From Aedes albopictus (lineage: Eukaryota; Arthropoda; Insecta; Diptera; Culicidae), in assembly GCF_035046485.1 (NCBI RefSeq), contig NC_085136.1, positions 299,304,778 to 299,368,777 of the forward strand: 64,000 bases of DNA. The letters run 5' to 3'. This document shows positions 17,201 to 20,132 of this stretch, in pieces. Every line of letters starts with the position of its first letter. Within the stretch, counting starts at the first letter, position 1. The notes beneath the pieces are model-generated. The model searched no databases, was not told where the DNA came from, and was given only the letters and a program-made list of their open reading frames with translations. The position numbers and the translations under genes were made by a program.

Positions 17201-17933
17201 GCGCAAGATTATGAAGAATGTTAGAGTATATCCACAGTCAAACAGATGTATCACTCAGTGCAAATTGCGATTAAATTCATCATCATGAAAATATTATACG
17301 CTGACTAGGTTGCGGTAGTAAACGTCACACAAGTGCAAAAATGATGCGAGCATTTGAATCATCCAATCGTTAAACAAATGAACAACGACAAGGAAATAGA
17401 GTATAACGTCCGTATGACTGGTATACCTAGTCCTAGTCCTAATACTTTGAAAGGTTTTCGAACATGAGTTTATAATGTAGATTTTTAAAGTACTTCAACC
17501 GAAATGTTTTTATGGATTCCTTACAAGTTTTTCGGTGATTGTAAACAAAAAACTAAACATGGAAAAGAAGGTTTCAGTTATTCCAATAATTCGTTTCTTT
17601 ATGGACCAAAAGACCTGAGCCATCAAAAAAGAGGATGAATTGTTTCCCATGTAGTATTTTCTTCAAAGCAGGGACTGCCTCCGTAATTTAAGATTCAAAT
17701 ACACCAAATAATTGAGATTCAGACCCAAACACGTGTTAGTATTTTTCCTTATTTACTGATAGTCCACTATTTGGGCATCATAACTTCCATAAACTGGTAC
17801 AAGATAGTATTTTTGGAGTTCTTTTAATTGTTTTTTCTGTTTCTCTCAGGGAGCTGGTCACAATGACGTCGAGCTGTACAACCAGTATCTGGACCGTCTG
17901 AAGAAATTCATCTCGGTCGAGCTCAATAACTGA
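11244..17933 (+). CDS. ABHD17: ABHD17-family depalmitoylase, complete, four coding exons
   Basis: An alpha/beta-hydrolase of the ABHD17 family: membrane-anchored serine hydrolases that remove palmitate from proteins such as Ras and synaptic scaffolds. Coding exons are 11244-11257, 16325-16960, 17029-17161 and 17850-17933, all with GT-AG introns (GTGAGT, GTAAGG and GTAAGT donors; CAG acceptors). The tiny first exon gives MNGL and two bases of Ser5. The 288-residue product equals the usual size of ABHD17B. A Cys cluster ([14 protein letters not shown], residues 7-20) is the family's palmitoylated anchor. The catalytic triad is Ser171 in YGQSIG, Asp236 in [10 protein letters not shown] and His265 in GAGHND; the oxyanion region [10 protein letters not shown] is present. 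Intron 1 (5.07 kb) and intron 3 carry MITEs. The TGA at 17931 is followed in frame by a very long open frame, described separately. The identity is secure. Confidence 0.96.
12820..13385. mobile_element. Partial copy of the 2901-4003 foldback arm
   Basis: The blocks TAAAATTTTGAGC-AGATCG, GAACTTTTAG-AAAACTTATA and GCTTTCATATGCAG, also found in the foldback at 2901-4003, appear here in the same order and end at TATAAGCTGTAAC. Only one side of the outer arm is present. Confidence 0.75.
14040..14990. repeat. Degenerate 12-base repeat inside ABHD17 intron 1
   Basis: Units such as CTCCTGAAGGACTC, GGAGGAATATC and CTGGAGAAATCC recur loosely. Short frames here (14227-14433, 14833-15084) are repeat translations and not exons. 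Confidence 0.55.
15397..15510. repeat. Short inverted repeat, GAGAATATTACAAAC arms
   Basis: GGTGAGAATATTACAAACTG (from 15397) is matched by GGTTTGTAATATTCTCC (15487-15503) on the other strand. It may be a very small MITE or a chance palindrome; no target duplication is clear. Confidence 0.4.
17233..17420. mobile_element. MITE copy B in ABHD17 intron 3
   Basis: This is a shorter relative of the element at 9823-10077. It starts CACAGTCAAACAGATGTATC and ends near ACGTCCGTATGACTG, and shares GCGGTAGTAAACGTCA, GATGCGAGCATTTGAATCAT and CGTTAAA. It lies wholly inside the intron 17162-17849. Confidence 0.7.
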
Positions 17934-20132
17934 CAATTAAAGAACGCCCCTGGTCAACCACCGCCTTCATCTACAGCGGCCGCAGCCGCAGCAGCAGCGA
18001 CACCATCATCGTCATCAAATACTGGCACCAAAAGTCCGAAACGACCAATTGGGGCCAAAGCTAGTACTGCCGAATCGAAAAAGGCCAGCCACGATGTACA
18101 ATCGTCAAAATCTGGAGTTGAAGGCGGTGCAGTTGCATCGACGAATGAAAAGTTGTTATAGCATTCGTTACCGGGGCCTAGTACCGCTTACGGCTGTAAC
18201 TGCGGTAAGGCAAGGAACAGTAGATCTCATCATGGGCACACCACCATCAGTAGCACGATTCGCAAGGAGCTGGCTTCCTACGAAAATCCTCATCAACCGC
18301 CACCGCCACCGCCACCCGTAACGATAAAACCGACCAAGAGAAACGCCAGTACGGAAAGTTTGGACCTGTTGAATAACGAGTGCACCTGTGCGATTTACAG
18401 CCCGAATTCAGCCGATGGAAACAAGTGCAAAAAGTGCCGCGCTGGACCTCGAGGTCAGCAACGTGCACAGAAGAAGTGTAATTCTTCCAAGTATAAGGAC
18501 GCGTCAACTTCGCCTAAATCCAACAGTCCGTTACGAACGCTGGAACCAAGAAGTCCCCGCAGCCCCAAAAGTCCGAAAAGCCCCACAGCGGAAGCTTCCA
18601 CGGACACGAAATTCGATTTTCCCGGTTCGCCTAGAACAGAGAACCATTACAAGCGCCTATCTACGCTGAGTATCAACAACAATGGCAACAAAAATATGGC
18701 CACTAGTCCGATGAAACAACCCCCTCCCAGAAGCCCTAATAAATTGACTCCGGTGAAAAGCGATCGAGTCCTTGAGAAGTCCAACTCCCTTGGTGATAGC
18801 AAGCCGCAGAAAATGCTGCGAACTACTCGGAGCTTATCGCCGCGGCCACCAATCAAGCATCAGCACTCGATAATGGTATCGGATGAGAATGATATAATTT
18901 CGGTAAAACTTTCACCGAACGAGGAGTTCGATGAAAGCAGGGAAAAGTGCAAGGAGGAAAATTGCGAAGAAGATGTTCCGCTTCAGCAGAAGGCTTACAG
19001 CGAAACGACATCTCCAAACTTGTCTGACTACGGTAGTTTAAAGTTGGAAGATAGTAATGTCAAAAACCCCAACAATCGAAGCACCAGCTGCTTGATATAT
19101 GTGCCATCAGACCCGTGGACTCGAATGTCGTCAAGGAACTCACCAGTTCCTCCCAACAAGAAAGAACTTAAGGCAAAGAAACTGGAAAGCAAATCGTTCA
19201 GCAAACCAAATTTAGAATATTTGGAAGACACGGACCCATGGGTATGGCGTTCCAATATCACGTTGAACGAACGAAACATAAAGAAAAAGGGTTCGCTACC
19301 GCACCAGACCAAATCACTTAGTAGCGCTCTCAGCCGAGACGAATTGGATTCGCGGCAGTCACGCCTCTGCCAGCAACGATCACTGACCAAATTCGATAAG
19401 ACTTTGACCATTCCGGGAATAGATTTGCATTTTGACGCTCGAAAGAAAATCACCCGCCCAAAACTACAACGCTCCAAGTCTCCAGCATTCTACGAAGAGT
19501 TCTTCCAAGTCGAGAAAGAAAAACCTCTCAACAAGAACAAATCGATATCCTCGTTGAAGATTGAGAAGAATGCCAGCAATTGCAACATCAACGGTGCCAA
19601 ATGTACTTGCTACGAGGCGAGCTCCCTCAGTCGGCAGCATTTCAGCCATAACTGTGACCACCAATCCTCCGTAGTCCATAAATCCACCACTAGCATTACC
19701 TCTCCCACCAGCAAAAAGCAACCGTCACCGAAGCTAAGCTTCCCTCAATCTCCCAAGCCAAAGCAACCACCCCAACCGGAACTGGTGAAGGCCTCTCTAA
19801 CCGTACTGAATCCGAACCTACTGCAACCGCGACACAGTTTCTCCACCACTCCCTCCGCCAAGGACGACGAACTGCAGCTGAACATCCGGCGGCTGAGCGA
19901 ACAAATGATGAACAAGTACAGCTCCGGCTCGGGCTACTTTGCCCAGCAGACGGCGCCGCCCAGCTTCATGACCGACACGATTCAGCCGCTGGAGAAGAAG
20001 AAAGCCGGCGGCAGCGGAGGGTTGACCTCCAGTGGGCCCAATGTCAGCAGCACCATCAACGGAGTCGAATCGAAGAAACGGGCCTCGTCGCACTCGAAGA
20101 TCAACGATCCGATACTGGAGACGCGCTGCTAA
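17931..20132 (+). CDS. Candidate stop-codon readthrough extension of ABHD17 (75 + 656 codons)
   Basis: In the frame of the ABHD17 stop, 17934-18158 is open (75 codons: LKNAPGQPPPSS…STNEKLL). It is followed by TAG (18159), then 18162-20129 is open (656 codons) to TAA at 20130. No in-frame ATG occurs before 18696, so an AUG-started protein could use only the last 478 codons and would leave 178 open codons after the TAG unexplained. The TGA reads TGA-CAATTA, matching the CARYYA readthrough context; the TAG is followed by C. Full readthrough would give about 1021 residues. The extension is polar and probably disordered: a Cys-rich part (YGCNCGKA; NECTCAIY … CKKCRAG), a proline run, a basic SP-rich tract (PRSPRSPKSPKSP), two DPW motifs (YVPSDPWTRM; EDTDPWVWRS), and a C-terminal LETRC. 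Alternatives are a separate gene, or splicing from the phase-0 donor at 17162 to the AG at 18160-18161. The long frame is firm; the mechanism is inferred. Confidence 0.75.

What the first reader, a model, noticed from the sequence alone, without database searches (positions are those of the whole stretch)
17931..20132. Very long in-frame extension after the ABHD17 stop codon, with a CARYYA-type readthrough context
Seen: the ABHD17 frame ends TGA-CAATTA, then stays open for 75 codons, TAG, and 656 more codons in exactly the same frame, with no in-frame ATG for 254 codons. Known: UGA followed by CARYYA is an efficient readthrough context, and readthrough is common in insects. Inference: a second, about 1000-residue isoform carries a long disordered tail on a membrane-anchored depalmitoylase, which could retarget or regulate the enzyme.
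Basis: partly seen in the sequence, partly recalled or inferred. Interest (0 to 1): 0.88.

Follow-up and report, generated by a model that had tools for sequence, protein, structure and literature searches.

The report
Depalmitoylase gene with hidden long tail
In a mosquito genome, the gene for a membrane-bound enzyme that strips fatty acids off proteins is followed, beyond two stop codons in the same reading frame, by a 656-residue stretch that related insects have kept closely similar, most likely made as a long tail on the enzyme when ribosomes run through the stops.

Summary
ABHD17 (288 aa) ends TGA-CAATTA at 17931. The same exon stays open in frame for 75 codons to a TAG (18159) and for 656 more to a TAA (20130), with no in-frame ATG until 18696.

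The 656-codon frame is a real, conserved protein segment: 67-82% identical in named culicine mosquitoes, 44-57% in Anopheles. The 178 codons before the first ATG are about as conserved as the rest. Of 120 listed relatives, 117 end in [LMF]ET[RT]C. Named Anopheles, moth/butterfly and hymenopteran gene models place a comparable tail on ABHD17 itself.

The attachment mechanism is inferred. The TGA has the TMV-type readthrough hexamer. No credible splice donor lies between the exon start and the TAG, and the AG of the TAG scores as an average AG. Double readthrough is favoured, about 0.55. Splicing from an upstream exon or separate initiation remains possible, because no RNA, ribosome-profiling or relatives' DNA was reachable. 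Support for the 75-codon segment is mixed.

New inference: the predicted-disordered tail ends like a class I PDZ ligand with a terminal Cys, so it may tether ABHD17 to PDZ scaffolds. Mammalian ABHD17 depalmitoylates the PDZ scaffold PSD-95.

The parts
11244..11257 (+). ABHD17 exon 1 (MNGLS start)
   Evidence: ATG AAC GGA TTA AG followed by GTGAGT donor; joins in frame to exon 2; same N-terminus as P0197
16325..16960 (+). ABHD17 exon 2: Cys cluster, serine nucleophile region (GQSIG; assignment recalled)
   Evidence: translation; Pfam PF12146 Hydrolase_4 above cut-off
17029..17161 (+). ABHD17 exon 3
   Evidence: translation; splice-site scores 6.2 (acceptor) and 8.1 (donor)
17850..17930 (+). ABHD17 exon 4 coding part, with GAGHND (catalytic His assigned from recall)
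   Evidence: C-terminus IELNN in Armigeres, VELNN in Wyeomyia, VELGN in An. maculipalpis
17931..17933 (+). first stop TGA
17934..17939 (+). CAATTA, the TMV-type CARYYA readthrough hexamer
   Evidence: motif in PMC3609751 and PMC4132726
17934..18158 (+). first extension, 75 codons, low complexity
   Evidence: open frame; of 11 relatives' N-terminal or extension peptides tested, 2 (An. coluzzii, An. maculatus) match frame 0 better than all 300 shuffles, 9 do not beat all shuffles in any frame; codon bias test did not favour frame 0
18159..18161 (+). second stop TAG (followed by C); also an AG at which several gene models appear to join
   Evidence: acceptor score average, 45% of all AG in the window score as high
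18162..20129 (+). tail frame, 656 codons, conserved and predicted disordered
   Evidence: 129 homologues, 120 listed; alignment A1 of 16; AlphaFold mean pLDDT 41
18162..18695 (+). 178 conserved codons upstream of any in-frame ATG
   Evidence: identity over aligned positions within -0.02 to +0.09 of that after the ATG in 11 of 11 mosquito proteins compared
18696..18698 (+). first in-frame ATG after the TGA; Met at this place in only 3 of 20 aligned relatives
19110..19118 (+). first DPW motif of the tail (SDPWTRMS)
   Evidence: P318 and W319 invariant in A1; matched with Lepidoptera
19233..19241 (+). second DPW motif (TDPWVWRS)
   Evidence: P359 and W360 invariant in A1; matched with Lepidoptera
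19857..19919 (+). only predicted helix of the tail (DDELQLNIRRLSEQMMNKY region)
   Evidence: residues 566-586, best 10-residue block mean pLDDT 88; LNIRRLSEQ invariant in A1
20115..20129 (+). C-terminal LETRC, class I PDZ-ligand-like
   Evidence: 117 of 120 listed relatives end [LMF]ET[RT]C
20130..20132 (+). final stop TAA

Best explanation
This is one gene with two products. Most ribosomes stop at the TGA and make the ordinary 288-residue ABHD17 depalmitoylase. A minority read the TGA, helped by the CAATTA context, and then the in-frame TAG, and make a 1021-residue isoform: enzyme, a 75-residue linker and a 656-residue disordered tail. The tail carries conserved short motifs and ends in LETRC, which reads as a class I PDZ ligand (E at -3, T at -2, free residue at -1, Cys at 0). 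The likely role is to dock the palmitate-anchored enzyme on a PDZ scaffold, which may hold or be its substrate. Shown here: the reading frames, the protein conservation, the recurrent fusion of ABHD17 with such a tail in gene models, and the lack of good-scoring splice sites at either stop. Inferred: readthrough itself, passage of both stops, PDZ binding and the cellular role.
For: Frame, both stops and hexamer. Tail conserved at protein level in culicines, Anopheles, sandflies, the midge Clunio and brachyceran flies. The 178 codons before any ATG are about as conserved as the rest (Armigeres 0.87 vs 0.88, Culex 0.76 vs 0.76, An. stephensi 0.63 vs 0.58; 11 of 11 compared), and no alignment column there has Met in more than 3 of 20 relatives, so translation most likely enters from upstream. 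ABHD17 carries such a tail in models from An. christyi and An. epiroticus, in 12 lepidopteran models (10 end LLETTC) and in 5 hymenopteran models (3 end LETKC). Dipteran and lepidopteran tails match as profiles over the two DPW motifs (hhalign E 0.00019, probability 47%). Best splice donor from the exon start to the TAG scores -2.7 against 7.1-8.2 for the three ABHD17 donors; AG 18161 scores -2.6 against 2.0-7.2 for the three ABHD17 acceptors. Of the 102 hits, 8 are from 'lgn': 7 are tail-only and P0189 is another hydrolase without this tail, so none is a spliced fusion. UGA with CARYYA gave about 15% readthrough in the OPRL1 context (PMC4132726, passages); CAATTA follows the stop of the D. 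melanogaster readthrough candidate bi (PMC3609751, passages). 35 double-readthrough candidates are reported in Anopheles gambiae (PMC5100048, section 5 part 1).
Against: No RNA, ribosome-profiling or peptide evidence was reachable. Two stops in series should give a low yield, which sits awkwardly with strong constraint on 656 codons. The 75-codon segment is not favoured in frame 0 by codon bias, and 9 of 11 relatives' peptides tested do not beat all shuffles in any frame. Named models from Armigeres, Ochlerotatus, Topomyia, Culex, Sabethes and Uranotaenia, and from An. stephensi and An. maculipalpis, have other residues directly before the His of 18162, and the partial Malaya model starts there, which a real splice acceptor would explain. 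Predicted RNA structure after the stops is not above shuffles in 3 of 3 stretches. Conservation of the TGA and of CAATTA themselves could not be tested. Hymenopteran tails do not align with dipteran or lepidopteran ones (E 0.33 and 0.54) and have no DPW (0 of 5). The absence of spliced 'lgn' fusions is weak: one search scored a capped candidate list and a length range.
Confidence: 0.55

Rival explanations
1. Alternative splicing bypasses the stops. The strong donor at 17161/17162 or another upstream donor joins to an acceptor ending at the TAG (18161), putting the tail in frame without readthrough.
For: Exon 3 ends in phase 0 and 18162 is in phase 0. The clearly alignable culicine conservation begins at the residue after the TAG. 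Models from six culicine genera and from An. stephensi and An. maculipalpis have other residues directly before that His, which implies a join there in most of them, though the introns were not seen. Models of Tuta, Leptidea and Danaus share a junction near the end of ABHD17 (FVS followed by L or Q and AGAGPSRAGP).
Against: AG 18161 scores -2.6, and 45% of all AG in the window score as high; the ABHD17 acceptors score 2.0-7.2. No usable donor lies between 17850 and 18160 (approximate recalled matrices). Joining 17161 to 18162 drops GAGHND and would leave a dead enzyme. Other Anopheles models join at different places, as forced predictions would. None of the 8 'lgn' hits is a fused ORF.
Confidence: 0.23
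2. The tail is a separate protein with its own transcript or its own internal initiation, and its place behind ABHD17 in the same frame is incidental.
For: The NCBI-named mosquito hits are separate, uncharacterized or loosely named proteins; a conserved frame needs only some start.
Against: No in-frame ATG before 18696, while the 178 codons before it are conserved. The N-terminal peptides in the models are mostly unlike each other, and no early Met column is shared by more than 3 of 20 relatives. The same arrangement recurs in Lepidoptera and Hymenoptera as ABHD17 fusions.
Confidence: 0.15
3. The stops are changed in the mRNA by A-to-I editing (UGA and UAG both to UGG), giving a full-length protein.
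For: Both stops would become Trp by one such change each (genetic code; recalled).
Against: No data here; two independent editing sites are needed and the TMV hexamer would be a coincidence.
Confidence: 0.03
4. The TGA is a selenocysteine codon.
For: It is a UGA.
Against: No SECIS family among the 6 Rfam matches up to E 10 in 17850-24500. It would not explain the TAG, and 99 of the 112 new ABHD17 rows end within 32 residues of the GAGHN-like motif, as here.
Confidence: 0.01

Closest known systems
Conserved stop-codon readthrough and double readthrough in Drosophila and Anopheles (Jungreis et al. 2016, PMC5100048; outline, section 5 part 1 of 2 and search passages seen)
   Same: In-frame conserved coding sequence after a TGA followed by C, in an insect, with two stops in series
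   Different: The extension here is long (731 sense codons) and ends in a motif shared across insect orders. Whether the Anopheles ABHD17 orthologue is on their list of 353 could not be checked because the supplement is not readable here; a search of the main text for 'abhydrolase' and 'hydrolase' found none.
TMV-type CARYYA readthrough signal
   Same: CAATTA directly after the stop is the TMV hexamer according to PMC3609751 (passages)
   Different: UGA instead of the viral UAG (recalled); a host gene
ABHD17 (FAM108) depalmitoylases
   Same: 288 residues, N-terminal Cys cluster, alpha/beta hydrolase domain; mammalian ABHD17 depalmitoylates PSD-95 (PMC9913408, passages); the Cys cluster is needed for membrane localisation (PMC3506735, passages)
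   Different: A long disordered C-terminal isoform is not described in the passages seen
Class I PDZ ligands with a C-terminal cysteine
   Same: X-S/T-X-Cys at the C-terminus; the PTPN3 PDZ domain binds such a ligand in the class I manner (PMC7806630, passages)
   Different: No PDZ partner has been tested for LETRC/LETTC

Membership tests
Functional stop-codon readthrough | Open reading frame continues in frame after the stop | tested here: met
Functional stop-codon readthrough | Protein-level conservation after the second stop, without a usable start codon | tested here: met
Functional stop-codon readthrough | Protein-level conservation between first and second stop | tested here: inconclusive
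   2 of 11 relatives' peptides match frame 0 above all 300 shuffles, 9 do not; codon bias not in favour
Functional stop-codon readthrough | Synonymous-substitution signature (PhyloCSF) and conserved stop codon identity across species | not testable with these tools
   no insect DNA besides the own genome; two scans of viral contigs and one of prokaryotic contigs found none
Functional stop-codon readthrough | Leaky stop context | tested here: met
   TGA-CAATTA compared with PMC4132726 and PMC3609751; the TAG is followed by C but not by CARYYA
Functional stop-codon readthrough | Alternative splicing, downstream ATG and selenocysteine less likely | tested here: inconclusive
   ATG and SECIS disfavoured; no good splice sites with recalled matrices, but splice junctions not seen directly
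ABHD17 | Hydrolase domain and conserved length and C-terminus | tested here: met
Class I PDZ ligand | C-terminal X-S/T-X-hydrophobic (Cys tolerated), conserved at -2 and 0 | tested here: met
   117 of 120
Class I PDZ ligand | Binding to a PDZ domain | not testable with these tools
   no binding data

The most novel reading that the evidence does not exclude
Across at least flies, moths and wasps/bees, ABHD17 has a second isoform, made by readthrough in mosquitoes and about 3.5 times longer there, whose tail ends in a near-invariant LET[TRK]C PDZ ligand. It docks the depalmitoylase on PDZ scaffolds, so that termination efficiency sets how much depalmitoylase sits at the scaffold. Lineages differ in how they pass the stops: readthrough in mosquitoes, perhaps splicing in moths and wasps, and a sense codon at the first stop in at least one unnamed relative (P0200).
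Probability: 0.3. Interest if true: 0.82.

Novelty: new member of a known kind. Interest (0 to 1): 0.62.

Why it matters
If true, a conserved protein segment of over 650 residues has been annotated as a separate uncharacterized gene in mosquitoes because it lies behind two stop codons. It would give insects a way to place a depalmitoylating enzyme on a scaffold by tuning termination, and it offers a directly testable case of long double readthrough.

Tried and rejected
RNA structure after the stops: no signal (z -0.45, 0.72 and 0.04). Codon bias of the first extension: frame +1 scored above frame 0 (0.177 vs 0.106), so it does not support coding there. P0200, an ABHD17 from an unnamed 'lgn' contig, continues past the usual end (VELKLSQEK...) for 118 residues from the K and ends TEQLL, against NEKLL before the TAG here. 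The endings look alike, but the whole alignment is no better than shuffles (129 of 300), so I use it only as a hint. Eight other peptides compared with the three frames of the first extension also failed to beat all shuffles, among them Topomyia (52 of 300 in frame 0). Matching contig lengths between ABHD17 and tail proteins, to show one contig, found no shared length among unnamed contigs on reading the tables by eye; clustering at 90% hides most. Scans for insect DNA in viral contigs (2) and prokaryotic contigs (1) confirmed nothing. A DNA search of the own genome with 17850-18720 gave only the locus itself, so no retrocopy was seen. Dipteran versus hymenopteran and lepidopteran versus hymenopteran tail profiles do not align (E 0.33 and 0.54). 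The splice matrices are approximate and recalled; one search scored one ABHD17 acceptor one base off, corrected. Literature: ABHD17 with readthrough gave 3 papers; judging by titles and abstract starts, none treats stop-codon readthrough of ABHD17. CG33096 gave 1 paper, and together with readthrough none. Aedes with stop codon readthrough and ribosome profiling gave 7 papers, seen as a listing; of these, passages or sections of PMC5100048 and PMC7826183 were looked at as cited.
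Full report
Setting. The window lies in a 1.344-Gb assembly held without a name. The closest named relatives of the tail are Armigeres (82%) and Ochlerotatus (78%), so this is a culicine, probably aedine, mosquito (inference). The tail and the exon-4 region each gave a single place in that genome.

Observation. ABHD17 is encoded by exons 11244-11257, 16325-16960, 17029-17161 and 17850-17933 and is 288 residues long. Its TGA (17931) is followed by CAATTA. The same exon then runs open for 75 codons to TAG (18159) and for 656 codons to TAA (20130), all in frame, with the first in-frame ATG at 18696. 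An open run of 75 codons is ordinary, while 656 codons is far beyond the 241 seen as the maximum in 500 shuffles.

The tail is a real protein segment. The search with the 656 codons scored a capped list of 7984 candidates and gave 129 homologues, 120 of them listed. Identities there: named culicines 67-82%, named Anopheles 44-57%; lower in sandflies (Lutzomyia, Sergentomyia), the midge Clunio and brachyceran flies. In 11 of 11 mosquito proteins compared, the 178 codons before the first ATG are about as well conserved as the 478 after it (difference -0.02 to +0.09 over aligned positions), for example 153/175 vs 412/468 in Armigeres and 108/171 vs 269/464 in An. stephensi. Conserved blocks there include, in the window's letters, HSLPGPSTAYGCNCGKA, TISSTIRKELASYENP, KRNASTESLDL and KDASTSPKSNSPL. 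In the 178 codons no alignment column has Met in more than 3 of 20 relatives, and the window's first Met is Met in 3 of 20. Whatever makes this protein therefore most likely enters from upstream of 18162.

It belongs to ABHD17. A search with the joined protein (stops as X; a capped list of 7994 candidates) returned 102 proteins. Among them are An. christyi (1167 aa) and An. epiroticus (1150 aa; it stops short of the ending) models in which ABHD17 runs into this tail. together list 12 lepidopteran models with ABHD17 and a tail: P0124, P0126, P0127, P0128, P0135, P0136, P0137, P0140, P0210, P0211, P0218 and P0278. Of these, 10 end LLETTC (not P0127 and P0211) and 11 have two DPW (P0136 one). They list 5 hymenopteran models, P0125, P0129, P0130, P0132 and P0134, of which 3 end LETKC and none has DPW. 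All these fusions are annotation products, and their junctions near the end of ABHD17 differ between many models, as expected when a predictor is forced round a stop, though three moth/butterfly models share one junction. Dipteran (22) and lepidopteran (9) tails match as profiles over the two DPW motifs (E 0.00019, probability 47%, one short match); hymenopteran tails (4) align with neither (E 0.33 and 0.54) and share place and, in part, ending. P0133 of An. sinensis is a different ABHD17 with a different long tail.

How it is attached. (a) Readthrough. TGA-CAATTA is the TMV-type hexamer. CARYYA gave about 15% readthrough after UGA in the OPRL1 context, with UGA and UAG similar (PMC4132726, passages), and CAATTA follows the stop of the D. 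melanogaster candidate bi (PMC3609751, passages). The second stop has only a following C. Double readthrough has 35 candidates in An. gambiae (PMC5100048, section 5 part 1), and bumblebees have 851 readthrough candidates, at least 306 judged functional (PMC7826183, passages). (b) Splicing. With approximate recalled matrices, the three ABHD17 donors score 7.1-8.2 and the best GT between 17850 and 18160 scores -2.7 (29% of all GT in the window score as high). The three ABHD17 acceptors score 2.0, 6.2 and 7.2 and AG 18161 scores -2.6; 45% of all AG in the window score as high. Splicing 17161 to 18162 would be in frame but would remove GAGHND. Against this, the models of Armigeres, Ochlerotatus, Topomyia, Culex, Sabethes, Uranotaenia, An. 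stephensi and An. maculipalpis have other residues directly before the His of 18162, and the partial Malaya model starts there; a real acceptor would explain that, as would a conserved TAG. The rival is alive. In one search, the 'lgn' source (which I take to be read-archive assemblies, from recall) gave 8 of 102 hits: 7 are tail-only and P0189 is another hydrolase without this tail. (c) Own start: no ATG, and the N-termini in the models are mostly unlike each other (Armigeres and Ochlerotatus are similar). (d) Selenocysteine: no SECIS hit.

The first extension. Support is mixed. I compared 11 relatives' peptides with the three frames. Frame 0 matches An. coluzzii (score 78, shuffles 48.8 +- 7.3) and An. 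maculatus (85, 48.1 +- 7.2) better than all 300 shuffles, and frames 1 and 2 do not. The other nine do not beat all shuffles in any frame, including Topomyia (52 of 300 in frame 0) and P0200 (129 of 300); the best of them is Uranotaenia in frame 1 (15 of 300). Codon bias favours frame 1 slightly. The Uranotaenia model carries LVNHRL, identical to frame +1 here, so the DNA coding for PGQPPP in frame 0 is probably conserved (inference).

What the tail may do. AlphaFold on an alignment of 16 gives mean pLDDT 41 with 609 of 656 residues below 50 and one helix at 566-586, so the tail is predicted disordered. The best-kept parts are short motifs (LEKSNSL, SLSPRPP, STSCLxYVPSDPW, RPKLQ, LNIRRLSEQ) and the C-terminus: 117 of 120 listed relatives end [LMF]ET[RT]C (76 LETTC, 37 LETRC, 3 METRC, 1 FETTC); the other three are P0035, P0085 and P0086. 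E, T and C are fixed in these 117 and the residue between T and C varies, the pattern of a class I PDZ ligand. A C-terminal Cys is accepted by such a domain (PMC7806630, passages). Mammalian ABHD17 depalmitoylates the PDZ scaffold PSD-95 (PMC9913408, passages), and the N-terminal Cys cluster of the family is needed for membrane localisation (PMC3506735, passages). A tail that docks the enzyme on a PDZ scaffold is the explanation I favour for its function; it is inference.

Verdict. The sequence observation is fully confirmed and the tail is a strongly conserved coding segment of the ABHD17 gene (my estimate about 0.8 that it is made as part of ABHD17 by some route). Readthrough of both stops is the best single mechanism at 0.55, not demonstrated. 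The kind of mechanism is known in insects, so this is a new member of a known kind unless it is already in the supplement that I could not read.

Noticed in passing
window 35156-39435: Two near-identical long reverse-transcriptase-like frames in opposite orientation (35156-36904 minus, 37027-39435 plus) with a GIY-YIG-like stretch; looks like an inverted pair of Penelope-like elements (assignment recalled, not tested).
   Followed up: no
window 8457-9041: Fragment of a reverse transcriptase-like frame from a retroelement (recalled, not tested).
   Followed up: no
window 26797-27798 and 44578-47490: Long frames on both strands made of PGIPPGI / EEFLEE-like repeats, probably a simple-sequence satellite (not tested).
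   Followed up: no
P0133 (Anopheles sinensis): A second ABHD17 type in Anopheles, also modelled with a long but different C-terminal tail.
   Followed up: no
P0200 (unnamed contig of 3079 bases): An ABHD17 whose usual stop is replaced by sense codons and which ends TEQLL, like NEKLL before the TAG here.
   Followed up: partly
P0224 (unnamed contigs): ABHD17 with W directly after the usual C-terminus LTN and a long low-complexity extension; may be a TGA read as Trp.
   Followed up: no
window 18162-18476: The tail's N-terminal part carries conserved CxC and CxxC pairs (CNC, CTC, CKKC) that might bind metal or be acylated.
   Followed up: no
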